A stretch of DNA of 64,000 bases. Source: a virus. The notes beneath the pieces were generated by a model. It saw only the letters and a list, made by a program, of their open reading frames with translations. It did no database searches and was not told where the DNA came from. Both the position numbers and the translations under genes were made by a program. Shown in pieces: positions 6,410 through 56,982 of the stretch (position 1 is its first letter; the number at the start of each line of letters is the position of its first letter). The stretch spans positions 1 through 64,000 of the IMG/VR virus record IMGVR_UViG_3300008111_000011; one strand, given 5' to 3'.

Positions 6410-7489
6410 ATGACTGCTACAATTTCACGTCAACGACAATCAAATACTTGGGAACAATTCTGCAACTGGGTTACTTCAACCGATAATCGTCTTTATGTTG
6501 GTTGGTTTGGAACTCTGATGATTCCTTGCCTGCTTGCTGCTACTATCTGTTTCATTGTTGCCTTCATTGCTGCACCTCCTGTAGACATCGATGGTATCCG
6601 TGAACCCGTTGCTGGTTCACTCATGTACGGAAACAACATCATCTCGGGTGCTGTTATTCCTTCGTCCAACGCAATTGGACTGCACTTTTACCCCATTTGG
6701 GAAGCTGCTTCCCTAGATGAGTGGCTCTACAACGGTGGTCCTTTCCAACTTGTTGTATTCCACTTCCTGATTGGTATCTATGCCTATATGGGTCGTGAGT
6801 GGGAACTCTCCTATCGTCTGGGTATGCGTCCTTGGATCTGCGTTGCTTACAGCGCACCTGTTGCTGCTGCTTCTGCAGTGTTCTTGGTCTATCCTTTCGG
6901 TCAAGGTTCTTTCTCTGATGCGATGCCTCTGGGTATTAGCGGAACCTTCAACTACATGCTTGTGTTCCAAGCAGAGCACAACATCCTGATGCACCCCTTC
7001 CACATGCTTGGTGTTGCTGGTGTGTTTGGTGGTTCACTGTTCAGTGCTATGCACGGTTCTCTGGTTACTTCCTCACTGGTTCGTGAAACCACTGAGAACG
7101 AGTCACAGAACTATGGTTACAAGTTCGGTCAAGAAGAAGAGACCTACAACATTGTTGCTGCACACGGTTACTTTGGTCGTCTAATCTTCCAATATGCCTC
7201 ATTCAACAACTCTCGTTCACTTCACTTCTTCCTTGCTGCATGGCCTGTAGTTGGTATCTGGTTCACTGCTCTTGGTGTTAGCACCATGGCATTCAACCTC
7301 AACGGTTTCAACTTCAACCAGTCTATCGTTGATAGTCAGGGTCGTGTGCTCAACACTTGGGCTGACGTTCTGAACCGCGCTGGTCTGGGCATGGAAGTAA
7401 TGCACGAGCGCAACGCTCACAACTTCCCTCTTGATCTTGCTGCTGTTGAGAACACTCCTGTTGCTCTCACCGCACCTGCAATTGGTTGA
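6410..7489 (+). CDS. psbA: photosystem II D1 protein
   Basis: Full-length D1 (359 residues), the photosystem II core subunit that turns over fastest in light. Key residues are in register with cyanobacterial D1: Tyr161 (YZ), Asp170, Glu189, His190, His198 (P680), His215 and Ser264 (QB pocket), His332, Glu333, His337, Asp342 and processing after Ala344. Residue 130 is Glu, as in the high-light D1:2 form. The protein inserts in the thylakoid and would replace host D1 during infection. No intron is present. Preceded by a combined early/late promoter and closed by a UUCG terminator; its codon choice is more GC-rich than the phage average. Confidence 0.99.
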
Positions 7490-7511
7490 TATAATATAAA
7501 AACTTAAAACT

Positions 7512-7532
7512 GGGGTCTTCGGACCCCTTTTT
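7512..7532 (+). terminator. intrinsic terminator after psbA
   Basis: GGGGTC (7512-7517), UUCG-type tetraloop TTCG, GACCCC (7522-7527), then TTTTT. A compact, strong intrinsic terminator 22 bases after the psbA stop. Confidence 0.9.
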
Positions 7533-7548
7533 ATTTCGGAGGATATAA

Positions 7549-8610
7549 ATGGTTTCATCTACTTTACAGCAACCAATTACACAAAGGGGGTGGTTCGATG
7601 TTCTCGATGACTGGCTTAAGCGTGATAGGTTTGTTTTTGTCGGTTGGTCTGGTCTTCTACTATTCCCGTGCGCTTATCTTGCTTTGGGTGGGTGGCTTAC
7701 GGGAACTTCGTTCGTCACCAGTTGGTATACGCACGGTATTGCTTCAAGTTACCTTGAGGGTTGTAATTTCCTTACCGCTGCTGTTTCTACTCCTGCTGAT
7801 GCTCTCGGACATTCCCTTCTACTTCTCTGGGGTCCAGAAGCTCAGGGAGATTTCGTCAGGTGGTGTCAACTTGGGGGACTCTGGCCTTTTGTGGCGCTCC
7901 ACGGATCTTTCGCTCTGATTGGATTTATGCTTCGCCAGTTTGAGATTGCCCGACTGGTAGGCATCCGTCCTTATAATGCAATCGCATTCTCTGGTCCCAT
8001 TGCAGTATTCGTTTCTGTATTCCTGATGTATCCACTGGGACAATCCAGTTGGTTCTTTGCACCTTCATTTGGTGTTGCTGCCATCTTCAGGTTTCTTCTA
8101 TTCCTTCAGGGTTTCCACAACTGGACCCTCAACCCCTTCCACATGATGGGAGTTGCTGGTATACTAGGAGGAGCACTGCTCTGTGCTATTCACGGAGCAA
8201 CAGTTGAAAACACTCTATTTGAAGATAGTGATCAAGCAAACACTTTCAAAGCATTTGAACCTACACAGGAAGAAGAAACGTATTCAATGGTTACTGCAAA
8301 CCGTTTCTGGTCGCAGATATTTGGTATTGCTTTTAGTAACAAGCGTTGGTTGCATTTCTTCATGCTATTTGTTCCTGTCATGGGTCTTTGGACTTCCAGC
8401 ATTGGTATCATTGGTCTTGCCCTTAATCTTCGTGCTTATGATTTTGTAAGTCAGGAAATTAGAGCAGCAGAAGATCCAGAGTTTGAAACCTTCTACACGA
8501 AGAACATTCTTCTGAATGAAGGTTTACGTGCTTGGATGGCTCCAGTGGACCAACCACATGAAAACTTTGTGTTCCCAGAGGAAGTTCTTCCGAGGGGTAA
8601 TGCTCTCTAA
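7549..8610 (+). CDS. psbD: photosystem II D2 protein
   Basis: Full-length D2 (353 residues), partner of D1 in the photosystem II reaction centre. One residue longer than the usual numbering, so Tyr161, His198 and His215 here correspond to YD Tyr160, His197 and His214. A strong GGAGG lies 5 bases before the ATG. It follows psbA with only the D1 terminator between, and no separate promoter is obvious, so expression probably depends on read-through. No frameshift or truncation is seen. Carrying both D1 and D2 would let the phage maintain a matched reaction-centre pair. Confidence 0.99.
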
Positions 8611-11691: not shown

Positions 11692-13176
11692 ATGCATGTG
11701 TGTATTGTTGGAACAGGAGCTGCTGGATGGATATCTTGCAATGTTCTGAAATCAGTTCCTTTTATTAGAGAAATAACACTTATAGGTTCTCCTAACATAC
11801 CTCCTATAGGAGTTGGAGAATCTACAACACTTTCTGTTATTAGGTGTCATAAAAATATAGAAGATCATGATATGAGGGAGTTTATAAAAACTTCTGACGC
11901 TACAGTTAAATATGGAGTATATTACAAGGATTGGTCTGAAAATGATTTTATCCATTCATTTAAGGCTTATGAAAAACCAAAACAATTGGACAATCTAAAG
12001 ATCAAAAGTGTATATCAATACATGAGAACTTTTGGTAACAAGTCAAAAAATAAACCATATCATGATTTAATTAATAAAAATTTCTTTGATTTGATTAGAA
12101 ATAATAAGGTTCTTCTTAGTCCAGAAGAAACACATTCTTGGCATTTTGACGCATCAAAGTATATTAAATATTTAAAAAATCTTGCTTTAAAGAATACAAA
12201 AATAAAATTAATAAAAGATACTGTTGTTGACTGTGTTAGAAATGAAAAAGGATTAATAGAATCTGTTATTCTCTCTAATGGCAATCATGTAAAGGCAGAT
12301 TACTTTATAAATTCGAGTGGTACATCTGATGTAAATACTAAAGTCTTCGATGAAAAGTATCAAGATCTATCGAACATTCTTCTTACAAATAAAGCAGTAT
12401 TTTGTCCGATAGAATATGAAACTTATGAAGATAAAAAAAATAAACTTCATCCATATACAATATCAAAGACTATGGATTATGGATGGAGATGGATAACTCC
12501 AGTTTGGTCTAGAGTTGGAACTGGATATGTGTTTAGTTCAAATCATACAAGCATTTCTAATGCTATTGATGAATTAATTGATGATTTGTATGAAGATGGA
12601 GCTGCTCCAAGAACAGTTGATTTTAATCCAAGATATAATAAAAAACCTTTTAAATTTAATACATGTAGCATAGGATTGTCTGGTGGATTTTTAGAACCAC
12701 TAGACGCTCCTGGGTTAGCTTTTACATATGATTTTTCAGTAAAACTCCCCCAGTTACTATCAAAATATTATGACTGTACTGTATTTGGAGAAAATGAAAA
12801 CTATTTGAGAGAAGTTGAATCTCTTAATGCTGAGTATGTTGATTCTATGAAATGGTGGACATCATTTATACTCTGTCAATATAAAACTTGTTATAGAGAA
12901 GACACTGATTTTTGGATAGACCAAAAAAATGTTCAATATGATTATTATGATGAAATAATGGAAAATATTGATTGTTTGGATGAAAAATATCCAAATAAAG
13001 AAGAAGATATTAATATGTTTACCTTTACTATGGCAGCAAAAGACATAAATTGGAAAACTAAATTAGAAATAGAACCTTTTGCTTTGGAAGATGAAGAATA
13101 TCTCACCATAGACCACATAAAATGGATAGAGAGTTTTCACATTGATCATTGGAAATCGGTAGGAGAAAATGTATGA
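11692..13176 (+). CDS. tryptophan-halogenase-like flavoprotein
   Basis: Protein of 494 residues of the flavin-dependent tryptophan halogenase family. Motifs in order: FAD-binding GTGAAGW near residue 7, IGVGESTT at 39-46, a Lys at 73 in the position of the catalytic lysine of PrnA-type enzymes (TVKYGVYYKDW), and GWRWITP, a near match to the family WxWxIP motif with Thr for Ile. The GGFLEPLDAPGLAF segment fits the family's conserved GFLEPLE(S/A)TGL signature. It would use reduced FAD, oxygen and chloride or bromide, but the altered motif leaves halogenation unproven. Substrate unknown. Confidence 0.8.
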   Translation: MHVCIVGTGAAGWISCNVLKSVPFIREITLIGSPNIPPIGVGESTTLSVIRCHKNIEDHDMREFIKTSDATVKYGVYYKDWSENDFIHSFKAYEKPKQLDNLKIKSVYQYMRTFGNKSKNKPYHDLINKNFFDLIRNNKVLLSPEETHSWHFDASKYIKYLKNLALKNTKIKLIKDTVVDCVRNEKGLIESVILSNGNHVKADYFINSSGTSDVNTKVFDEKYQDLSNILLTNKAVFCPIEYETYEDKKNKLHPYTISKTMDYGWRWITPVWSRVGTGYVFSSNHTSISNAIDELIDDLYEDGAAPRTVDFNPRYNKKPFKFNTCSIGLSGGFLEPLDAPGLAFTYDFSVKLPQLLSKYYDCTVFGENENYLREVESLNAEYVDSMKWWTSFILCQYKTCYREDTDFWIDQKNVQYDYYDEIMENIDCLDEKYPNKEEDINMFTFTMAAKDINWKTKLEIEPFALEDEEYLTIDHIKWIESFHIDHWKSVGENV

Positions 13177-47133: not shown

Positions 47134-47745
47134 ATGAATATGAAAAAGATTATTAAGCAAGCTCCTACTATCATGGAGAAGCACAACGCATTAGGTGTTT
47201 ATTTTTCTATTGACGAAGGATATCCAGCAGTTCCTTATGGAGCAATTAAATACTTTGAAAAGTATGGATATTTGTTGGTGAAAGATTTATATAATTCGGG
47301 ATATTTTAAAAATGACTATGACAAAATCCTCAGAAAAAATAACATTTGTAGTATTTTTTCCGAGGATTATTATAAATGTTTTGAAGAAATCAAAAACATT
47401 TTAGAGAGTGTTTTTGATACAAGTCTATATAAAAAATCATATTATGATAAATTTTTTACTACTTCTAGTGGAAATCTAGATTATTTTAATCAAAATTCCA
47501 ATATTTGTGTCAGATATCAATTAAGTTCGAATTCGAATAAAACAATTGTTTATATTGAAACTGATACAAACGAAATACATGAGGTTAATTTATGTAATGG
47601 TGGAGCATTAATTTATAAAAACAACATTGAAAGAAAAGTATCTATTAAAAACGTTGGTGACTCTAACAATGTTATCAAAAAACTAATACCAAACAATTTC
47701 TTCAGTCACCAAATTTTCTTTAATTATGACTATTGTAGTAGATAA
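47134..47745 (+). CDS. oxygenase-fold-like protein lacking iron ligands
   Basis: Protein of 203 residues. The segments IKYFEKYGYLLVKDLYN and NGGALIYKNNIERKV resemble EFEKNGLLYVKDIFT and TGSALLYKGIDLPHW in the oxygenase at 50622-51197. The HxD and distal His of that enzyme are absent here (CVRYQLSSN in place of YLKYHIDRP). It may be a non-catalytic relative used as a binding protein. It lies between two paralogous fibre-module genes. The homology call is tentative. Confidence 0.5.
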   Translation: MNMKKIIKQAPTIMEKHNALGVYFSIDEGYPAVPYGAIKYFEKYGYLLVKDLYNSGYFKNDYDKILRKNNICSIFSEDYYKCFEEIKNILESVFDTSLYKKSYYDKFFTTSSGNLDYFNQNSNICVRYQLSSNSNKTIVYIETDTNEIHEVNLCNGGALIYKNNIERKVSIKNVGDSNNVIKKLIPNNFFSHQIFFNYDYCSR

Positions 47746-47763
47746 ATTCTTAAGGAGGTAAAA

Positions 47764-48132
47764 ATGGCACACTTTGCTGAACTTGATGAAAATAATACAG
47801 TAAAGCAAGTTATTGTTGTCGGTAACGAGAATTTGATAAATGAAAATGGTGAAGAAGTTGAAGAACTTGGGGTTAACTTTTTAGAAGATCTATTCGGTCA
47901 TAGAAATTGGAAGCAGACTTCTTATAATAATAATTTTAGAAAAAAATATGCTTGTATAGGTGATACCTATAGAGAGGATAAAGATTGCTTTATAGGAGAA
48001 CAACCATTCCCAAGTTGGTCTTTAAATGAAGAAACTATGGAATGGGATCCTCCAGTGCCTAAACCAATTATTGCTGGAACATTTTACGTTTGGGTTGAGT
48101 CTGAACTAAAATGGAAAAATCTTGTCGAATAA
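47764..48132 (+). CDS. fibre-module protein, paralogue B
   Basis: Protein of 122 residues starting MAHFAELDENNTVKQVIVVG and containing GHRNWKQTSYNNNFRKKYAC and EQPFPSWSLNEETMEWDPPV. Clear paralogue of the gene at 46732. AAGGAGG before the ATG gives a strong ribosome binding site. Duplication around an unrelated gene suggests cassette exchange in the fibre region. Confidence 0.68.
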   Translation: MAHFAELDENNTVKQVIVVGNENLINENGEEVEELGVNFLEDLFGHRNWKQTSYNNNFRKKYACIGDTYREDKDCFIGEQPFPSWSLNEETMEWDPPVPKPIIAGTFYVWVESELKWKNLVE

Positions 48133-48173
48133 AAAGTAAATATATATCTAGTATGCAATAGGATTATTATTTT

Positions 48174-48776
48174 ATGTCATTTCAAAGTGTTTGGTATGAA
48201 ACCAAAATGCCAGAAGAAATTATTGACATCTTCGAGAAAGAACTAGAATATGTTCCAACAGAAGATGGTCAAGTAGGTCAAGTAGATAATTTTAGAATTT
48301 CATATAAAACAAGAAAATCTAAAATTGGTTGGATTGGAGCAAATTGTTGGTTTTCTGGACTTTTGCATTCATATATTCTGAAAGCAAATAACGAAAACTT
48401 TTTCTATGATATTGAGGGTTTTGAAGGAGACACTATCCAATACAGCATTTATAATAAAGATAGTCATTATACTTGGCACACTGATATGTCCCTTCCAAAT
48501 TTTTATCACCCCACAAAAAATAAAGAAGAAGATTTTATAAAATTAAAGTCAGAACGTATTAGAAAATTGTCAGTTAGTTTACAGCTATCTGGAGAAGATG
48601 AATATGAAGGTGGCGAAATGCAGTTTTTAGATGACAATAACCAACTTTATACTGCACCAAAATCTAGAGGAACTATAATTATTTTTGATAGCAGAGCTAA
48701 ACATAGAGTAAGAAAAGTAAAATCTGGATGCAGAAAATCGATTGTAGGGTGGGTTGTTGGACCTAGATGGAAATAA
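48174..48776 (+). CDS. PKHD-type 2OG/Fe(II) hydroxylase
   Basis: Protein of 200 residues. Iron ligands H102-T-D104 in YTWHTDMS and H177 in RAKHRVRK, with R187 in GCRKSIVGW for 2-oxoglutarate. The GGEMQF and RGTIIIFDS strands are typical of the PiuC/prolyl-hydroxylase class. Substrate unknown; its place among fibre genes raises the idea of modifying a fibre or host surface protein. Confidence 0.85.
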   Translation: MSFQSVWYETKMPEEIIDIFEKELEYVPTEDGQVGQVDNFRISYKTRKSKIGWIGANCWFSGLLHSYILKANNENFFYDIEGFEGDTIQYSIYNKDSHYTWHTDMSLPNFYHPTKNKEEDFIKLKSERIRKLSVSLQLSGEDEYEGGEMQFLDDNNQLYTAPKSRGTIIIFDSRAKHRVRKVKSGCRKSIVGWVVGPRWK

Positions 48777-48779
48777 ATA
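48772..48779 (+). promoter_or_regulatory. late promoter motif AATAAATA
   Basis: AATAAATA overlaps the hydroxylase stop and lies 29 bases before the glycine-rich fibre gene. Confidence 0.6.
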
Positions 48780-48807
48780 TAAAATAATAGAGAAATAATC
48801 TGATAGT

Positions 48808-50625
48808 ATGCCACTTCCTAGTTCTGGACAAATAAGCCTACTACAAATTGCCCAAGAATTTCTAGATGGGGCCCCACACCAGATGGACGAGTTCTATAGG
48901 GGAGGGGCTAAAGTTCTCCCTAGTCCTGCAAATAACCCTATTCCAACAAGTGGTACCATTGCATTTTCAAATTTTTATGGAGCAACTCTAAAACTTACTA
49001 CGGGAGGAACAGAATCTACTAGCCCATCTGGAGGATCAACAAGACACACTTTTACAACTACTGGAAATTTTCAAGCTATTGGAACAATTCCAAGTTTAAA
49101 TTATCTTGTTGTAGCTGGTGGCGGAGGAGGAGGTTCTGTTTATGGTGGTGGTGGAGGTGCCGGAGGGTTTAGAGAAGGAACCTTTACAAACTTTGCTGCT
49201 GGAACTTATACAGCAACTGTTGGTGGTGGGGGAGGAGATAGAGGTAATGGCAATAATAGCGTTTTTAGTACTATTACTTCTGCAGGCGGTGGAGGTGGTG
49301 GTAGAGGATATCAAGGAAGTCCTTCCACAATTCCGGGAGTAGCAGGAGGATCTGGAGGTGGAGGTGGATTCTCTGCAAACTATATTGGATTTTTTGGAGG
49401 AAGTGGGGGAGCAGGAAATACTCCGGCAACTTCACCTTCACAGGGGAATAATGGTGGAAGTGGGGCGCACGGAGGTCCATCCTATCCTGGTGGTGGAGGA
49501 GGCGGCGGAGCTAATGGTGCGGGAAGTAGTAAATACTCCGCGTTTGGATCTGCTGGTCCTGGTGGATTTGGAAGAACAGCTTCAATAAATGGATCAACTT
49601 ATGCCGGTGGTGGAGGTGGTGGACAATATAGAAATCCTTCACAACCATTTGCGCCTGCAGGAGTTGGTAGAGATGGTGGTGGTAATGGTGGAGTTGGTGC
49701 TGGTGGAGCAAGCGGAACAGCAAACACTGGAGGAGGTGGTGGTGGAGGATCTGGTAATGGAAATGGTGGGTCTGGTATCGTAATCTTATCTTATGCAAAT
49801 GCCACAGGAGGAACTGTAACAACAGCCAGTGGTTATACGATCCATACATTTACCTCTACAAACACATTTACCGCAAATTCCACAATTACTGCAGAATATT
49901 TGGTAATTGGTGGAGGTGCTGGTGGTGGTATGGGATCTGGGGGTGGAGGAGGAGCTGGAGGTTATAGAACTGGTTCTATAACAATACCTGCCGGATCTTA
50001 TACAGTAACTGTTGGTGGTGGAGGTGGTGGTGGAACCTCATATGGAGCGAAAGGTCCTAATGGAAATGCAAGTTCTTTTAGTACAATAACTGCTGCTGGA
50101 GGAGGTGGTGGTGGAACTTCTTATCCTTCTTCGGCATTCCCGGGAAACCCAGGCGGATCTGGTGGAGGAACTAGCGGAGAAGGTGGATCTATCGGTCCTG
50201 GAAACTCTCCCGCAACTGCGCCATCACAAGGAAATAATGGTGGACAAGGAAGACAACTTGGATACTCTGGTGGTGGAGGTGGTGGAGGTGCTGGAGGAGC
50301 TGGTGGCAGTAAATACTCTGCATTTGGATCTGCCGGAACAGGTGGAACTGGAACAACTAGTAGTTTTAATGGAACAAGCACAGTTTATGCCGCTGGCGGT
50401 GGAGGAGGACAATATAATGACTATACGCAACCATTTGCACCTTCAGGGCCAGGAGGATCTGGTATTGGTGGAAGGGGAGGGACTAGAGCAACTCCAGTTG
50501 GAAGTGGTACAGCTAATCGCGGAGCAGGGGGTGGAGGGTCTGGTAATGGTTGGCAAGGAGGTTCATTCTTCTCTACTGGAGGAGGATCTGGAGGTTCTGG
50601 AATAGTAATGATTAGATATACTTAA
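48808..50625 (+). CDS. large glycine-rich adhesin with two tandem domains
   Basis: Protein of 605 residues. The N-terminus MPLPSSGQISLLQIAQEFLD ... TIAFSNFYGA is an attachment segment found on many marine phage fibres. Two glycine-rich receptor-binding domains follow (about residues 95-330 and 345-605), each starting YLVVAGG or YLVIGGG and ending GGSGIVILSY or GSGIVMIRY, and both resembling the gene at 45721. The pair shares DNA phrases, favouring recombination. Its end overlaps the opposing oxygenase gene. Confidence 0.75.
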   Translation: MPLPSSGQISLLQIAQEFLDGAPHQMDEFYRGGAKVLPSPANNPIPTSGTIAFSNFYGATLKLTTGGTESTSPSGGSTRHTFTTTGNFQAIGTIPSLNYLVVAGGGGGGSVYGGGGGAGGFREGTFTNFAAGTYTATVGGGGGDRGNGNNSVFSTITSAGGGGGGRGYQGSPSTIPGVAGGSGGGGGFSANYIGFFGGSGGAGNTPATSPSQGNNGGSGAHGGPSYPGGGGGGGANGAGSSKYSAFGSAGPGGFGRTASINGSTYAGGGGGGQYRNPSQPFAPAGVGRDGGGNGGVGAGGASGTANTGGGGGGGSGNGNGGSGIVILSYANATGGTVTTASGYTIHTFTSTNTFTANSTITAEYLVIGGGAGGGMGSGGGGGAGGYRTGSITIPAGSYTVTVGGGGGGGTSYGAKGPNGNASSFSTITAAGGGGGGTSYPSSAFPGNPGGSGGGTSGEGGSIGPGNSPATAPSQGNNGGQGRQLGYSGGGGGGGAGGAGGSKYSAFGSAGTGGTGTTSSFNGTSTVYAAGGGGGQYNDYTQPFAPSGPGGSGIGGRGGTRATPVGSGTANRGAGGGGSGNGWQGGSFFSTGGGSGGSGIVMIRYT

Positions 50626-51197
50626 TCACAGTTTAATAAATTAAAACAATCAATATCTTTATCATAAGCATATTCTTTATATTTTCCATTTTTTCTAACA
50701 TAATGGAGAAATAATTGAATATGATTTTCGTTTTTACTGCAGTTTAAAGGTGATCTCCAATGTGGAAGATCTATGCCCTTATATAAAAGAGCAGAACCCG
50801 TGTCAATATAAAATTTTTGTTTCTTTCCACTAGAATCTAAGATTTGAAGTGGCCATTTTGTAGGACTATCTATTGTAACCGAAAGAGATATCTCACAAGA
50901 AGGTCTATCAATATGATATTTTAAATATGATTTATTTGGATATGCTGTCATGAACCAATAAGTGGGAACTATTTCTTCTCCAAGCAATTCTTCAATAACT
51001 ACTTTTGCTTTTTTTACGGCAAAAACTGCATACTTTGGAGAGTAAAACATGATAACGTTTCCTCTTGTTTTATCATATTCCGGTTGATACAAATTTATAT
51101 TATTTTTATATGCACCTTTTTTAATTGATGCAATTTCGGATCTAGTAAATATGTCCTTTACGTATAACAATCCATTCTTTTCAAATTCTCTATTCAT
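50622..51197 (-). CDS. 2OG/Fe(II) oxygenase-like protein
   Basis: Protein of 191 residues from MNREFEKNGLLYVKDIFTRS; an upstream Met adds 13 residues but is less likely. Proposed iron ligands are H95-I-D97 in YHIDRPS and H146 in LPHWRSP, with IQLFLHYV forming a late strand. The only minus-strand gene in this part of the window; it converges on the glycine-rich adhesin with a four-base overlap. Substrate unknown. Confidence 0.75.
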   Translation of the reverse strand: MNREFEKNGLLYVKDIFTRSEIASIKKGAYKNNINLYQPEYDKTRGNVIMFYSPKYAVFAVKKAKVVIEELLGEEIVPTYWFMTAYPNKSYLKYHIDRPSCEISLSVTIDSPTKWPLQILDSSGKKQKFYIDTGSALLYKGIDLPHWRSPLNCSKNENHIQLFLHYVRKNGKYKEYAYDKDIDCFNLLNCD

Positions 51198-51210
51198 TTT
51201 ATTTTGGGTG

Positions 51211-51268
51211 AAGTGGACACTTTTTAAACTGACCACTTCTTGACAAAAATTGTTTATTGTGGTCTAAA
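51211..51268 (+). promoter_or_regulatory. palindrome plus sigma70-type promoter
   Basis: AAGTGG (51211-51216) and CCACTT (51233-51238) flank ACTTTTTAAACT, forming a near-perfect palindrome. Directly after it come TTGACA (51240-51245), a 17-base spacer and TCTAAA (51263-51268). The palindrome abuts the -35 box and could be a regulator site or a bidirectional terminator remnant. Confidence 0.6.
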
Positions 51269-51387
51269 ATTTGGACAGTTCGCAACAGGCATGTAATTGT
51301 TCAGCACTTTTGATAGGATCCTATTTTTAGGATCTATTATTTGGTTTTTTCATTGGGCAACAAAATTAACTGAACTTGTTATTAACC

Positions 51388-51816
51388 ATGTTATGTTTTG
51401 AATTATCTGGTTATGGATACAGAAAAAAACTTTGTGAAAATGTAATTACTTGGTTTATTAAACACTATTTACCAAGACACAAAATTGATTTGTTTATCAA
51501 CCACAGGGGATTAAAAAGAGAGGGTGTTTATGGATTTGCAAGCATTGATAGTCCATATTATAACCCACGATCATTCTTGATCGAAATCCAAAGTCACTTG
51601 GAGGAAGAAGACTATATTTCCACTTTATTACACGAACTTTGGCATGTGTATCAATGGGTAAAAGGTTCTATGAAAGAAAAGGGAAATAAACGTCTTTGGA
51701 AGAATATTGATTATACCGAAGTTTCTTATGAAAATCAACCATGGGAAATAGAGGCAAAGAACATGGAAATAATTTTATTGCAACAATATCTTGACAACAC
51801 TCTCCATACTAAGTAA
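51388..51816 (+). CDS. HExxH metallopeptidase-like protein
   Basis: Protein of 142 residues from MLCFELSGYGYRKKLCENVI; a TTG four codons upstream is unneeded. HELWH at residues 82-86 gives the zinc-binding and catalytic set; PWEIEA at 118-123 likely supplies the third ligand, as in gluzincins. No signal peptide, so cytoplasmic, unlike its look-alike at 808-1554. It precedes the restriction-modification cassette but has its own promoter. Substrate unknown; SprT-like DNA-protein crosslink or regulator cleavage is only a guess. Confidence 0.68.
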   Translation: MLCFELSGYGYRKKLCENVITWFIKHYLPRHKIDLFINHRGLKREGVYGFASIDSPYYNPRSFLIEIQSHLEEEDYISTLLHELWHVYQWVKGSMKEKGNKRLWKNIDYTEVSYENQPWEIEAKNMEIILLQQYLDNTLHTK

Positions 51817-51819
51817 AAT
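51791..51819 (+). promoter_or_regulatory. consensus sigma70 promoter for restriction-modification cassette
   Basis: TTGACA (51791-51796), 17-base spacer, TAAAAT (51814-51819), 27 bases before the endonuclease gene. Overlaps the end of the metallopeptidase-like gene. Confidence 0.75.
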
Positions 51820-51845
51820 AACCTTTGTGCAGGTTCAAACGCATT

Positions 51846-53174
51846 ATGAAGACTCTTTGGGTACTCGGAGAAGAACAGATCTCCTCAGACATTCCTAATC
51901 TTATTCATTGGGTATGTAATAGTAACGTTGAATTTGATCAGATTAAGTACGATCTAACAACTATTGACGGTAAAATCTTCTTCAAGATTTCAGGTATTCG
52001 CAGTTCTCAGTATTCTGAATTTTATTATGGATTGGTTTCTCGTTCTGGCAATGGTTTTGTAGATTTTCTTGTATATGAACGTTCAGAACCTCCCACAGAA
52101 AATAGTATTCCCATTGCAGTAGCAGAAGCAACAAAGTGTAATGGAAAAGAATCTGGAAATATGAATTCTCAAAGAGCGTCTAAGAAGATTGCTATTATTG
52201 AGAAGTGGGGAAATATTCCTTTTGCATATTTGATTGCAAATTCTCTCCCTATTGAAGAAACTCAGAAGTCTTTTGGTCACTCACATAATTGTGATTTTGC
52301 TACTATGAGTTACTTTGGTGCTGATATTTTGATCTCTAAGATCGGAGAACTTGGATATCAGAAATATGAGAATCCAATTGAGTTTTCTTCAGTTGTAGAT
52401 GTTTGCGCTCAAGAGGGACTTAAGAAATCTAAGTCTGGATTTATTCCTTCTAGGGTTTTCTGTGGTGATAATGTGATTCAGATTCAGGCAAATCTCTTCA
52501 AAAACAAAGGTAACAACGATCCTGGTGAGGGATATATTGCAAGTCGTGCTTATCTTTGTCGTCTACTGAGTACAGACGAAGAAATTCAGATTATCAACCA
52601 TAACCGCCCTCGTGAATATTTTGAGCGTAAAAACAACAAACTAGTTAACGTTCTTAAGATTGTTGGAGTTACTATTGTTTTTCCCGATGGGAATAACCTT
52701 GTAATTGAAAAGCAACCTGGAATCTATGATAAAGATTACTGGCAGTATTCAAATCGTGGGGAGAAGATTGCTTCGATTGTGATGGAGAATTACTACGTTA
52801 ATCTGGGATGGGAAGTTCTCTTTACAAATCATGCTGGGTGTGGAAAATCCTATGTAAGTGCCAATGGTGAGTATTACAAGACCAAGAAATCTAAAGGTCT
52901 TCCTGATCTTGTTCTCTACAACAAGTCACAAAATCTTCTTTATGTGATTGAGGCAGAGCAATCTAAAAACTACAAGAAAGGTATCAAACAAGTCAAAGAC
53001 GTTGAGTTCTCTAAGTTTATCGACCGAGAGATTCTTCCTCACCTCCCTTCTGGAGTTAAATCGGAAAAGTATCTTTGCACTTATGGAAAATACAATAATG
53101 AACCTGAAGTTATCTTTAATTTGACAGAAGACTTCCAAATCAATTATAATGTAAATGCAGAGGTAATCAAATGA
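51846..53174 (+). CDS. predicted type II restriction endonuclease
   Basis: Protein of 442 residues from MKTLWVLGEEQISSDIPNLI; an upstream Met would overlap the promoter transcript start. The C-terminal SKGLPDLVLYNKSQNLLYVI followed by EAEQSKN gives a PD...ExE metal site (about residues 352-371), like the PD-(D/E)XK enzymes with ExE and similar to BsuBI/PstI C-domains. An N-terminal AVAEATKCNGKESGNMNSQR stretch could be a second conserved element. It forms ATGA overlaps with two adenine methyltransferase genes, the standard setting of a restriction enzyme. Target sequence unknown. It could instead be a non-cutting methylation accessory protein. Confidence 0.68.
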   Translation: MKTLWVLGEEQISSDIPNLIHWVCNSNVEFDQIKYDLTTIDGKIFFKISGIRSSQYSEFYYGLVSRSGNGFVDFLVYERSEPPTENSIPIAVAEATKCNGKESGNMNSQRASKKIAIIEKWGNIPFAYLIANSLPIEETQKSFGHSHNCDFATMSYFGADILISKIGELGYQKYENPIEFSSVVDVCAQEGLKKSKSGFIPSRVFCGDNVIQIQANLFKNKGNNDPGEGYIASRAYLCRLLSTDEEIQIINHNRPREYFERKNNKLVNVLKIVGVTIVFPDGNNLVIEKQPGIYDKDYWQYSNRGEKIASIVMENYYVNLGWEVLFTNHAGCGKSYVSANGEYYKTKKSKGLPDLVLYNKSQNLLYVIEAEQSKNYKKGIKQVKDVEFSKFIDREILPHLPSGVKSEKYLCTYGKYNNEPEVIFNLTEDFQINYNVNAEVIK

Positions 53175-54151
53175 GATATATTGGCAATAAAACTAAACTT
53201 TTAGATTTTATTCACAGTGAAGTTCAGAGTGTCTGTGGTGATATTTCTGGTATGCAATTTTGTGATTTGTTTGCTGGATCTGGATCTGTGTCCAAATACT
53301 TTAAACAGTACGTACAGCAAGTGTCTTCTAATGACCTTGAGCAGTATAGCTATGTTCTCTGTTCTAATTACATTGGTAATCTATCAACAATCGATTGTTC
53401 AGATTTCATTCGATATTTGAATAATATTCCCAGCGTTGAGGGTAAATTTTATAAAAACTTTTCTCCTGCAGGAAATCGTAATTTCTTTACAGAACATAAT
53501 GCTAAAAGAATTGACGCAATTCGACAAGAAATTCAAAGGTTATTGAATGAAAATCAGATTAATTTAGATCAATACTATTTTCTTCTTGCTTCTTTGATCG
53601 AGACTGTTGACTCGTATGCTAATACGACAGGAGTTTATGGTGCTTTTTTGAAACAATTTAATGGAAGGTCTGCTAAAAATCTAGTCTTAGTTCCTGCTCA
53701 ACCAGCACCAGGAAATCGTGGTATCGCTTATCGAAATGACGCGAATAAGTTGATTGAGACAATTAGTGGAGACATTCTTTATCTCGATCCTCCATATAAT
53801 ACACGTCAGTATGGAGCAAATTATCATATTCTTAATTATTTGGTTGACTATGATAATTTTCAATTTAAAGAGGATTCTAAAACTGGACTTGGTGATTATA
53901 ATAAATCAGATTATTCCTCAAAGAGATCTGTTTTGGAATCTTTTGACCAACTGATTCGCGATTCTAACTTTAAATATATTTTCGTTTCTTATAACAATGA
54001 AGGTATCTTAACCATGGAGCAAATGGAGAATATTATGTCAAAATATGGACAATACCAACTGAAAACCAAAGAACATAAACGATATAAGTCCAATACAAAT
54101 AATCCACAACAAGCAAAAGTCTTAGAGTACCTTCACGTTCTTATCAAATGA
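53171..54151 (+). CDS. N6-adenine DNA methyltransferase (D12 class), M1
   Basis: Protein of 326 residues starting MRYIGNKTKLLDFIHSEVQS, the D12-class opening. SAM-binding motif I is FCDLFAGSGSVSKYF near residue 30, and the catalytic motif IV DPPYNTRQYGANYHIL near 206. It would methylate adenine in a specific DNA site, protecting phage DNA from the upstream endonuclease. It overlaps the endonuclease and the second methyltransferase gene by four bases each. Confidence 0.9.
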   Translation: MRYIGNKTKLLDFIHSEVQSVCGDISGMQFCDLFAGSGSVSKYFKQYVQQVSSNDLEQYSYVLCSNYIGNLSTIDCSDFIRYLNNIPSVEGKFYKNFSPAGNRNFFTEHNAKRIDAIRQEIQRLLNENQINLDQYYFLLASLIETVDSYANTTGVYGAFLKQFNGRSAKNLVLVPAQPAPGNRGIAYRNDANKLIETISGDILYLDPPYNTRQYGANYHILNYLVDYDNFQFKEDSKTGLGDYNKSDYSSKRSVLESFDQLIRDSNFKYIFVSYNNEGILTMEQMENIMSKYGQYQLKTKEHKRYKSNTNNPQQAKVLEYLHVLIK

Positions 54152-55083
54152 CATTTACTAATTTTGTTACCGAGTTTCCAATTGTTAAAAATCCAAAAAC
54201 AAAATCACAAGTAAATGTTGCTTCTCCATTTATCCAGTGGGTTGGTGGAAAGCGATCTCTCTTGGACAAGTATGATCCACTAATTCCAGTAGAATTTAAT
54301 AATTATTATGAACCATTTTTGGGTGGTGGAGCTATGTTCTATCACCTATATTCCAAGTACGGTAATACTAAAAAATATTACCTTTCTGATTTTAATTCTG
54401 AGTTGATTACGGTCTACAATAGCATTGTATCTTCCCATGAAGAGGTTGTTGAATTGCTTTCACAAATGAATACGCGGCACAGTAAAGAGTTTTACTATTC
54501 AGTTCGTAACTACGATCGAGAAGAAATTTCACCAAAACGGTATAGAAAAAAATTTAATGTACAAGAAGAATTAAATCATGTTGAACTTGCTGCAAGGTTT
54601 ATATACTTAAATCTAACTTGTTTCAATGCGCTTTATCGGGTAAATTCTGAAAACTTGTTTAATGTTCCTATTGGAACTTCTCTTAAAAAGGACATTTCTG
54701 ATAATGGATTGCTAAAATCTTGCTCGGAAGTTCTTGAGTCTGCAGATATTAAATTTCAATCATATGAAATGATTAATCCTGTTGAGGGTGATTTTGTATT
54801 TTTTGATCCACCATACGCACCTCTTTCTTCAACTTCAGATTTTACGTCATATACTTCTGAGGGATTTTCATTGAATGATCAAATGAAATTGAAAGAGTTT
54901 TGCGATACTTTGAAAAGTAAAAATGTGCAGTTTATGCTATCAAATTCAAATTGCGAATTTATTAGGGAACTTTATAAAGATTATGAACAACATACATTTT
55001 CTTTGAATAGAACTCTCAATTCCAAAAAAGAATTAAGGAAGCAAACAACAGACAATGAAATTCTAATTGTCAATAAAAACTAG
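54148..55083 (+). CDS. N6-adenine DNA methyltransferase (Dam-type), M2
   Basis: Protein of 311 residues of the Dam/DpnM type: FIQWVGGKRSLLDKY, motif I YYEPFLGGGAMFYHL near residue 55 and motif IV DPPYAPLSSTSDFTSYTSEG near 221. It differs clearly from M1, so the pair is not a recent duplication. Two adenine methyltransferases beside one endonuclease is typical of systems with asymmetric targets or of DpnII-like systems. It ends just before a palindromic promoter region. Confidence 0.92.
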   Translation: MTFTNFVTEFPIVKNPKTKSQVNVASPFIQWVGGKRSLLDKYDPLIPVEFNNYYEPFLGGGAMFYHLYSKYGNTKKYYLSDFNSELITVYNSIVSSHEEVVELLSQMNTRHSKEFYYSVRNYDREEISPKRYRKKFNVQEELNHVELAARFIYLNLTCFNALYRVNSENLFNVPIGTSLKKDISDNGLLKSCSEVLESADIKFQSYEMINPVEGDFVFFDPPYAPLSSTSDFTSYTSEGFSLNDQMKLKEFCDTLKSKNVQFMLSNSNCEFIRELYKDYEQHTFSLNRTLNSKKELRKQTTDNEILIVNKN

Positions 55084-55085
55084 GA

Positions 55086-55138
55086 CAGTTTTTAAACTGG
55101 CACACCATTTATTTTAAATTCAATTTTTGCCTTATAAT
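55086..55138 (+). promoter_or_regulatory. palindrome CAGTTTTTAAACTG and downstream -10 box
   Basis: CAGTTTTTAAACTG (55086-55099) is followed by CACA and 33 bases later by TATAAT (55133-55138). No good -35 hexamer is seen, so the palindrome may recruit an activator. It precedes the gene at 55162. Confidence 0.5.
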
Positions 55139-55161
55139 GATCTGTACAACTGGAGGTTTTC

Positions 55162-55356
55162 TTGAAAACTGAATTTATTTGTGTTGAACCCAAGAGTCCT
55201 AATGCAAAAATTAGGTTTGAAACTATGATGGATTCGCTCCATTCTTGTAAAGTTGAACAAAGAAAAGACGGGAAAGTTTTTCTTTCTTCTATTACGGGAC
55301 GTTATTTCTTCTGCATTCCAGAATCTGGAGACGATCATTGGAAAATCGTTAAGTAA
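55162..55356 (+). CDS. small protein with TTG start
   Basis: Protein of 64 residues, read as MKTEFICVEPKSPNAKIRFE then MMDSLHSCKVEQRKDGKVFL. A perfect GGAGG at 55152-55156 sits five bases before TTG, and no ATG fits upstream, so TTG is the start. A beta-rich end (GRYFFCIPESGDDHWKIVK) follows. Unknown function; early-type. Confidence 0.65.
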   Translation: MKTEFICVEPKSPNAKIRFETMMDSLHSCKVEQRKDGKVFLSSITGRYFFCIPESGDDHWKIVK

Positions 55357-55366
55357 ATTAATAATC

Positions 55367-55930
55367 ATGAAATATAAAAAATTACTCAAAAATTATCCCA
55401 TACTTCTAATAAAAAATTTTGAAGTAGTTGATGATAGTAAAAGAGAATCTCTAGTCAATATTGTTTATACAAATAGTAAAAAAACCTCTATTGATCTTAC
55501 TGGATATAGTTTTCCATTGTTTCACGATCCCACTTGTTTTTTTGCAAATCTTTTAAAAAAGTTTAGAGAAACGTGTGTGGAATTGTTTGGTGATCTTAAA
55601 TATCTACCAACAAACAATGATTTTTGTTGGGCATATTGTAGCAATAGTGGTGATTATGCTGAAATTTGGCATGATCATATGAAGACATCTACTATTAATT
55701 CTGTTTATTATCTAAATGTTCCGAATTGTTCTGGTGGAGAAATCGAGTTTGATCTAGGAAAAAATAAGACGTTTAAATATAAACCAAGCAATTTTGATCT
55801 ATTAATTTTTCCAAACTATCTGAGACATAGACCTCTAATGGTAAACAGCAAAGAACTTAGAGTTTCAATTAATATGGAATTCTTGTGCGAAGAGCAACCA
55901 TTTTATATCTTTGATTTTAAAGAAAGATGA
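55367..55930 (+). CDS. 2OG/Fe(II) oxygenase-like protein (HxH type)
   Basis: Protein of 187 residues. WHDHMKTSTINSVYYLNVPN, SGGEIEFD, LLIFPNYLRHRPL and ELRVSINMEF match the putative oxygenase family with WHxHxxxxSxxxYYL, where the first iron ligands are H102 and probably H104 rather than HxD; H154 and R165 complete the site. First of three consecutive oxygenase genes; ATGA overlap with the next. Substrate unknown. Confidence 0.8.
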   Translation: MKYKKLLKNYPILLIKNFEVVDDSKRESLVNIVYTNSKKTSIDLTGYSFPLFHDPTCFFANLLKKFRETCVELFGDLKYLPTNNDFCWAYCSNSGDYAEIWHDHMKTSTINSVYYLNVPNCSGGEIEFDLGKNKTFKYKPSNFDLLIFPNYLRHRPLMVNSKELRVSINMEFLCEEQPFYIFDFKER

Positions 55931-56427
55931 AATTTGAAATCTATGATAATTTCTTAGATTATCAACAATTCTTTCTTTTAAAATCTAGCATTTTGAATGC
56001 AAATTTTCCCTGGTATCTAAATGACGGTATAATCACACCTACCGAAACAAAGTTTGCAGATGAAAGTGAGAGATATCAATTTACACATACTTTTTTTGCA
56101 GAAAACAACGTAAAAAGTTCCTGGTATCAATTTTTAAGTCCAGTACTAGATAAAATACCCCATAAAAATCTTATAAGAATCAAGGCAAATCTTTTGCCAA
56201 GAACTGATTTTGCAGAACTTCAACCATTTCACTGTGATAATTCCTTTGATCATAATGTTTCTATTTTTTATATAAATTCTAATAATGGATTTACTGTTTT
56301 TGAAAATGGAGATAAGGTGGAAAGTGTTGAGAATCGATTACTAACGTTTTCTGGAAATTGCTTGCACTCTGGAACTACTTGTTCAGATAAAAATGCTAGG
56401 ATTCTTATTAATTTTAATTACGTTTAG
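55927..56427 (+). CDS. 2OG/Fe(II) oxygenase family protein
   Basis: Protein of 166 residues, a paralogue of the product at 9105-9593. Iron site H102-C-D104 in PFHCDNS, H147 in LHSGTT, R158 in ARILINFNYV. Shared strands include KNLIRIKANLLPRTDF and VESVENRLLTFSGN. ATG overlaps the previous stop. Probably cytoplasmic; substrate unknown. Confidence 0.83.
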   Translation: MKFEIYDNFLDYQQFFLLKSSILNANFPWYLNDGIITPTETKFADESERYQFTHTFFAENNVKSSWYQFLSPVLDKIPHKNLIRIKANLLPRTDFAELQPFHCDNSFDHNVSIFYINSNNGFTVFENGDKVESVENRLLTFSGNCLHSGTTCSDKNARILINFNYV

Positions 56428-56436
56428 AAATAAGAT

Positions 56437-56982
56437 ATGAATTTTAGATTTGTTGGCAATTTTGAAGTAGACAAAATAAAAGAAAAAATTATTGAAAACG
56501 GCCAAGATCCTTGGAGAGAGAATAGTGTGCGTCAAAAAATTTACGACGTACATAAAGATACTCAAACAATACCTTTATTATGGGATCTAAAATCTTTACA
56601 GCACAATACTATTGGTGAAAAAACTGAGTATTATGATCTATATGACGTTGAAAGTTATTTCTACGACATAAAAAAAGTTTTAGAGCAGTTTTATGGTGAA
56701 GGTAGAATTGTAAGAATTATTCTCACAAAACTTAAAAAAAGAAAAAAGATTTATCCGCACACTGACGACACAATATCACTTTCACTTTGCAATAGAATTC
56801 ATATACCAATTATAACAAATGAAAATGTTGTATTTTTGGTAGGTGGTGAATCTAAAGTTATGTTGGAAGGTGAAATGTGGGAGATTAACAATCTCAAAGA
56901 ACATTCCGTTTCAAACGACGGAAAATCTGATAGAGTTCATTTAATTATAGATTATTATGCATCAAAAAAATTCCGAGACTGA
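56437..56982 (+). CDS. aspartyl/asparaginyl beta-hydroxylase-like protein
   Basis: Protein of 181 residues with the AspH-type core: H108-T-D110 in IYPHTDDT, NRIHIPIITNENVVF, GEMWEINNLKEHSVSNDG with H156, and R166 in SDRVHLIIDYY. This class hydroxylates Asp or Asn side chains, or peptidyl targets, using 2-oxoglutarate and iron. Third of the oxygenase run. Overlaps the next small gene. Confidence 0.8.
   Translation: MNFRFVGNFEVDKIKEKIIENGQDPWRENSVRQKIYDVHKDTQTIPLLWDLKSLQHNTIGEKTEYYDLYDVESYFYDIKKVLEQFYGEGRIVRIILTKLKKRKKIYPHTDDTISLSLCNRIHIPIITNENVVFLVGGESKVMLEGEMWEINNLKEHSVSNDGKSDRVHLIIDYYASKKFRD

What the first reader, a model, noticed from the sequence alone, without database searches (positions are those of the whole stretch)
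51791..55083. Complete restriction-modification cassette in a cyanophage
Seen: one promoter (TTGACA-N17-TAAAAT) precedes three genes joined by ATGA overlaps: a protein with PD...ExE near its C-terminus, and two unlike N6-adenine methyltransferases (DPPYNTRQY and DPPYAPLSS). Known: two methyltransferases plus an endonuclease is the layout of type II systems with asymmetric or DpnII-like targets. Inferred: the phage methylates itself and cuts host or rival phage DNA, or the nuclease was acquired with its protection genes. A full system in a lytic T4-like phage would be unusual.
Basis: partly seen in the sequence, partly recalled or inferred. Interest (0 to 1): 0.8.

Follow-up and report, generated by a model that had tools for sequence, protein, structure and literature searches.

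The report
Self-contained restriction-modification cassette in cyanophages
A virus of photosynthetic bacteria carries a DNA-cutting enzyme together with two enzymes that chemically mark DNA against that cutter, so it can probably destroy unmarked DNA in the infected cell; the kit is kept intact in four separate virus lineages, though other cyanophages were already known to carry a different kit of the same general sort.

Summary
Three overlapping genes (R 51846-53174, M1 53171-54151, M2 54148-55083) encode a PD-(D/E)XK endonuclease and two dissimilar D12-class adenine methyltransferases. All 38 R relatives scanned match a PADLOC Type II restriction-enzyme model (window E = 2.5e-24); bacterial, plasmid and prophage relatives (about 25-28% identical) nearly always sit beside homologues of the methyltransferases. 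R-M1-M2, same order and ATGA overlaps, recurs in four phage lineages (R 46-81% identical) with catalytic residues kept; R dN/dS is 0.09. So this is a functional-looking Type II system, not decayed or chimeric.

The methyltransferases therefore probably have their own promoter, the EcoRI/Eco29kI arrangement.

It is less exceptional than claimed: cultured cyanomyoviruses S-SM2, S-CAM3, S-RIM32 and S-H9-2 already have annotated MjaI-type restriction enzymes. New here: a different R family, a virus-specific clade, a Dam/DpnII-like second methyltransferase, and the embedded promoter. Target sequence, enzyme activity and role (host DNA degradation or rival exclusion) are unproven.

The parts
51791..51819 (+). 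P_R: sigma70-type promoter TTGACA-N17-TAAAAT upstream of R
   Evidence: both hexamers kept in L008, though the -35 lies in the coding end of the upstream gene
51846..53174 (+). R: predicted Type II restriction endonuclease, 442 aa
   Evidence: PADLOC REase_II PDLC03445 E=2.5e-24, all 38 relatives match; dN/dS 0.093; AF2 pLDDT 89.5
52731..53171 (+). C-terminal PD-(D/E)XK nuclease domain of R: conserved E306, D354, E369, ExE variant at 371
   Evidence: E306, P353, D354 and E369 invariant in a 38-sequence alignment; AF2 domain pLDDT 92.3 with alpha-beta-beta-beta-beta-alpha order; Foldseek resemblance, weak, to Nt.BspD6I, McrC, PfoI, HindIII
53121..53150 (+). P_M: perfect promoter TTGACA-N18-TATAAT inside the R coding sequence, 20 bp before M1
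   Evidence: same place in four phage lineages with invariant codons, joint chance about 8e-5; background of perfect sites
53171..54151 (+). M1: D12-class N6-adenine methyltransferase, 326 aa, DPPYNTRQY
   Evidence: PF02086 6.3e-44; PADLOC MTase_II 4.1e-107; dN/dS 0.054
54148..55083 (+). M2: Dam/DpnIIA-like D12 adenine methyltransferase, 311 aa, DPPYAPLSS
   Evidence: TIGR00571 5.9e-71; solved DpnM structure 2dpm E=1.6e-56; FNALYRVN instead of FNxQIRFN of bacterial partner enzymes

Best explanation
The cassette is an intact, selected Type II restriction-modification system carried by T4-like cyanophages. M1 and M2 methylate adenine in the two strands of one, probably asymmetric, site, so phage DNA made in the cell is marked. 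R, a PD-(D/E)XK endonuclease, cuts DNA lacking the mark, chiefly the host chromosome and also any unmarked incoming phage or plasmid. R is transcribed from P_R with read-through into M1-M2, while M1-M2 are also transcribed from P_M inside R, so methylation capacity does not depend on R expression. Shown here: genes, homology, association, predicted fold, conservation, purifying selection and conservation of P_M. Inferred: enzyme activities, use of both promoters, target site, and which unmarked DNA matters. My split on role: host DNA degradation (nucleotide supply, shut-off) about 50%, exclusion of rival phages about 35%, mainly something else about 15%.
For: R matches a restriction-enzyme model over residues 83-429, as do all 38 aligned relatives. 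In 80 genome loci plus plasmids and prophages, R nearly always lies beside M1 and usually M2 homologues. E306, D354 and E369 are invariant, and all 89 relatives that cover the site have K or E at the last position. R-M1-M2 with ATGA overlaps recurs in L008, L090/L091 and L092 in differing neighbourhoods. dN/dS 0.093, 0.054 and 0.115 for R, M1, M2. AF2 gives a confident PD-(D/E)XK-like C-terminal domain. P_M is perfect in four lineages with frozen codons. Precedents: chlorovirus restriction enzymes thought to degrade host chromatin (PMC7019647); R-first operons with P_M inside R in EcoRI and Eco29kI (PMC3874152).
Against: No cleavage or methylation was measured. Phage R has ExE where most relatives have ExK; this occurs also in L012, L027 and L093 and in known enzymes such as BamHI (own knowledge), but it could lower activity. 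Foldseek found no significant solved structure (best E 0.05). M2 is of another subfamily than the M2 of bacterial relatives, so co-specificity with R and M1 is assumed. P_R is close to consensus only in window and L008.
Confidence: 0.82

Rival explanations
1. The methyltransferases are the selected part: they protect phage DNA from a host restriction system of the same specificity, and R is a passenger or an inactive remnant.
For: Methyltransferases without a restriction partner are common in phages, and Dam-like genes are found in many cyanophages. R has ExE rather than ExK.
Against: R has dN/dS 0.093, as low as its neighbours, is intact in four lineages at 46-81% identity with catalytic residues kept, and has M1-M2 beside it in every phage locus that extends that far.
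Confidence: 0.1
2. The cassette is a selfish addiction module that keeps itself in the phage population: after co-infection, recombinant progeny lacking it are unmethylated and cut.
For: The cassette lies in differing genomic neighbourhoods in three phage lineages, is found on small plasmids and prophages, and restriction-modification genes act as addiction modules elsewhere (PMC3874152).
Against: A lytic phage kills the cell, so classical post-segregational killing has little scope; the effect would need frequent co-infection. It also does not exclude the main reading, because the enzymes work the same way.
Confidence: 0.2
3. It is a modification-dependent or regulatory nuclease system, R attacking methylated rather than unmethylated DNA, with M1-M2 serving another role.
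For: Modification-dependent endonucleases encoded by viruses exist (HHPV4I, PMC10101028, title and abstract only).
Against: A modification-dependent R would attack the phage's own methylated DNA. R sits beside two methyltransferases across bacteria, which is the layout of Type II systems.
Confidence: 0.03

Closest known systems
Two-methyltransferase Type II systems with the PDLC03445 restriction enzyme (Streptococcus prophages Javan105 and relatives, Psychrobacter and Bartonella plasmids, many bacteria)
   Same: Homologous R over nearly its full length, homologous M1, a second D12 methyltransferase, adjacent genes
   Different: Only 25-28% R identity; bacterial order is usually M2-M1-R or with the methyltransferases on the opposite strand; bacterial M2 has FNxQIRFN or close, phage M2 FNALYRVN
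MjaI-type systems of cultured cyanomyoviruses S-SM2, S-CAM3, S-RIM32, S-H9-2
   Same: Type II restriction enzyme in a T4-like cyanophage, R first; in S-CAM3 and S-RIM32 the methylase overlaps by 4 bases
   Different: Unrelated restriction-enzyme family (RE_MjaI, PF09568) and a single PF01555-type methylase in L092; L092 carries both systems
EcoRI and Eco29kI regulation
   Same: R gene first, with a promoter for M inside the R gene (PMC3874152)
   Different: Unrelated enzymes; here two methyltransferases, and the promoter is known from sequence only; antisense promoters were not established
Chlorovirus restriction-modification systems
   Same: Virus-encoded adjacent R and M genes in a lytic DNA virus of a phototroph (PMC7019647)
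   Different: Eukaryotic host, other enzyme families, R packaged in virions there; packaging unknown here
DpnII and FokI systems
   Same: Dam-like M2 resembles DpnM; the M1/M2 pair resembles the two halves of a fused two-domain methylase model (PDLC03287; FokI-like by own knowledge)
   Different: R is not a DpnII or FokI relative in Pfam or PADLOC scans; the methyltransferases are separate genes

Membership tests
Type II restriction-modification system | Restriction endonuclease homologous to known Type II enzymes | tested here: met
   PDLC03445 REase_II 2.5e-24, all 38 relatives
Type II restriction-modification system | Nuclease active-site residues conserved | tested here: met
   E306, P353, D354, E369 invariant; last position K in most, E in the phage clade and a few bacteria
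Type II restriction-modification system | Cognate methyltransferase gene(s) next to R | tested here: met
   M1 and M2 overlap R; association kept in bacteria and four phage lineages
Type II restriction-modification system | R cuts a specific unmethylated site that M1/M2 protect | not testable with these tools
   Needs purified enzymes or a methylome
Asymmetric-site (Type IIA/IIS-like) subclass | Two strand-specific methyltransferases | tested here: inconclusive
   Two dissimilar D12 enzymes resembling the two halves of a fused methylase model; specificity not determined
BsuBI/PstI endonuclease family (PF06616) | Pfam match above the curated cut-off | tested here: inconclusive
   20.6 bits against cut-off 27, residues 346-377; 3 of 38 members match weakly
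DpnII system | DpnII-type R | tested here: not met
   No such family among Pfam, NCBIfam or PADLOC hits of R; only M2 is DpnM-like
MjaI system of cyanophages | RE_MjaI endonuclease | tested here: not met
   R does not match PF09568; the unrelated MjaI gene is elsewhere in L092
EcoRI-like regulation (P_M inside R) | Promoter sequence for M within the R gene | tested here: met
   Perfect TTGACA-N18-TATAAT in four lineages with frozen codons; activity untested

The most novel reading that the evidence does not exclude
A virus-adapted restriction-modification weapon: cyanophages took a bacterial two-methyltransferase system, put R first, exchanged the second methyltransferase for a Dam-like one (changing the target), and built a consensus promoter into the R coding sequence so that methylation precedes cutting; R then degrades the cyanobacterial chromosome in lytic infection, as proposed for chloroviruses.
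Probability: 0.35. Interest if true: 0.75.

Novelty: new member of a known kind. Interest (0 to 1): 0.55.

Why it matters
Restriction-modification is usually seen as a weapon of bacteria against phages. A conserved, selected system in several lytic cyanophage lineages suggests that these phages use it against host or rival DNA, and gives compact genes with which to test that. The promoter built into the R coding sequence is a concrete, testable answer to how a virus that unleashes a nuclease keeps its own DNA safe. It also indicates that cyanophages gained restriction systems at least twice, from unrelated enzyme families.

Tried and rejected
Chimeric assembly or host contamination: rejected, since four other assemblies, in two lineages 81% identical in R, have the same neighbours, and L090-L092 show the cassette beside other phage genes. 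Pseudogene: rejected by dN/dS and intact frames. Sequence search of R against the PDB, single and profile: nothing relevant. Foldseek of full-length R against PDB: only meaningless matches; domain alone: weak but rich in PD-(D/E)XK nucleases. Target site from depletion in the phage genome: uninformative (GATC 259 seen, 240 expected; GGATG 59 against 82). A search for a paper tying SfaNI to such methyltransferases found none; a BccI search listed nothing that I judged useful from titles and abstracts. A scan for further phage relatives with a phage-only R alignment found no new loci. A search for M-promoters in the MjaI systems was not conclusive.

Full report
Observation. The window is part of a 72,076-base virus record with psbA- and psbD-like genes, a gp32-type ssDNA-binding protein, baseplate tail-tube cap, baseplate hub/lysozyme, PhoH, ThyX and a UvsW-like helicase, so a T4-like cyanophage; that such phages are lytic is established knowledge and was not tested here.

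What the proteins are. M1 and M2 both match the D12 class of N6-adenine methyltransferases (PF02086, 6.3e-44 and 5.3e-54). M2 is Dam-family (TIGR00571, 5.9e-71) and closest among solved structures to DpnM (2dpm, 1.6e-56). R has no significant Pfam, NCBIfam or PHROGs match, only a sub-threshold BsuBI/PstI hit over the active site, but matches the PADLOC Type II restriction-enzyme model PDLC03445 at 2.5e-24. All 38 R relatives aligned match that model.

Gene association. tblastn found R relatives in Streptococcus prophages and on Psychrobacter and Bartonella plasmids, each with both methyltransferases nearby. A scan of GTDB genomes gave 80 loci from many phyla, and in nearly all of them an M1 homologue, usually with M2, is beside R; some of the exceptions are at contig ends. 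This association is the strongest argument that R is a restriction enzyme.

Active site. E306, P353, D354 and E369 are invariant over 38 sequences. Where both positions are present, the pattern is PD...ExK in 82 and PD...ExE in 7, the latter being the cyanophage entries plus a Riemerella and a Campylobacteraceae locus; L093 also has ExE. AlphaFold2 gives a confident full model (pLDDT 89.5) and a confident C-terminal domain (92.3) with the element order helix, strands, PD strand, ExE strand, helix. Foldseek against the PDB gives no match below E = 0.001, but the best domain matches are rich in PD-(D/E)XK nucleases: Nt.BspD6I, McrC, PfoI, HindIII.

Relatives in phages. IMG/VR holds contigs with R at 100% (L005, L006), 80-81% (L007, L008), 52% (L090, L091) and 46% (L092) identity. 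Wherever the contig reaches far enough, the order is R-M1-M2 with 4-base overlaps. Neighbours are the same in window and L008, and differ in L091 and L092, where flanking genes still match other parts of the window. Trees place the four phage R, M1 and M2 together (R support 1.0, M1 0.98; M2 0.40 for the four alone, 1.0 when joined with L093), with L093 as sister for M1 and M2. Between window and L008, dN/dS is 0.093 (R), 0.054 (M1) and 0.115 (M2), in the range of neighbouring genes (0.043-0.136); dS is high, so the ratios are approximate.

A second promoter. A scan of the whole window for TTGACA-N16-18-TA[AT]AAT gives only two sites, 0.2 expected: P_R and a perfect TTGACA-N18-TATAAT at 53121-53150, inside the end of R and 20 bp before M1. 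The perfect site is at the same place in L008, L091 and L092. There R reads L-T-...-Y-N, and the codons TTG, ACA, TAT and AAT are identical in all four lineages, whereas only 5 of 43 four-way-conserved leucines keep one codon, and TTG is kept at no other; the joint chance is about 8e-5 (site-by-site estimate, codons assumed independent). Adjacent synonymous positions vary. Across all loci held, perfect sites number 13 in 2.2 Mb of both strands, 5 of them this one (including L090) and 2 more in L093, one of these 50 bp before its M1. P_M is therefore very probably selected. R-first operons with an M promoter inside R are known for EcoRI and Eco29kI (PMC3874152).

How it probably works. M1 and M2 mark the two strands of one site; R cuts DNA without the mark. 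Virion DNA made in a cell expressing M1-M2 is protected on arrival, the host chromosome is not. P_M lets methyltransferases be made apart from R. Chloroviruses give a precedent: adjacent virus-encoded R and M genes, with R thought to cause host chromatin degradation and reported not to be responsible for mutual exclusion (PMC7019647). Which role holds here cannot be told from sequence. The target is unknown: M2 of phages and L093 carries FNALYRVN or FNAMFRVN, close to the FNGLYRVN of DpnM seen in the alignment, while all other M2 relatives have FNxQIRFN or close, so the phage target may differ from that of bacterial relatives. Site counts in the window do not reveal it.

Novelty. Complete Type II systems in T4-like cyanophages are not new as such: an MjaI-type restriction enzyme is annotated in S-SM2, S-CAM3, S-RIM32 and S-H9-2, with a methylase next to it in S-CAM3, S-RIM32 and S-H9-2, and L092 carries both that type and the present cassette. 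I found no paper in the searched library that discusses this; the genome paper for the oceanic cyanomyoviruses has no occurrence of 'restriction' in its main text (PMC3037559). Apart from four Streptococcus prophages, none of the 50,697 phage records gave a match to the present R. I therefore file it as a new member of a known kind with unusual features: virus-specific clade, ExE site, exchanged M2 subfamily, R-first order with an embedded promoter.

Noticed in passing
L092 7221-8560: Second complete restriction-modification pair in the same phage contig: RE_MjaI (PF09568, 2.4e-44) overlapping an N6/N4 methylase (PF01555, 1.3e-45).
   Followed up: partly
BFVD A0A5J6VIV0 (not in window): Uncharacterized 'Megaviridae environmental sample' protein matches R over its full length in structure (TM 0.82, E 3.7e-29), so this restriction-enzyme family may also occur in giant viruses.
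   Followed up: no
L003 4251-7404 and L098 691-3531: Two R homologues in tandem beside one methyltransferase pair, possibly a heterodimeric or duplicated endonuclease.
   Followed up: no
L093 4909 and 5883: Two perfect TTGACA/TATAAT promoters, 50 bp before M1 and about 100 bp before R, in the sister system with order M1-R-M2.
   Followed up: partly
L001 3637-5898: Gene annotated as RloC anticodon nuclease directly upstream of the R homologue in Streptococcus prophage Javan105, a stacked defence arrangement.
   Followed up: no
window 6410-8610: psbA- and psbD-like photosystem II genes, both hitting phrog_182.
   Followed up: partly
window 51376-51816: Gene upstream of R with HELWH motif and weak SprT/DUF6782 metallopeptidase similarity, matching phrog_10499.
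   Followed up: no
window 47134-56982: Several short genes that look like 2-oxoglutarate/Fe(II) oxygenases flank the cassette on both sides; judged by eye, not tested.
   Followed up: no
window 11692-13176: Large ORF that looks like an FAD-dependent tryptophan halogenase; judged by eye, not tested.
   Followed up: no
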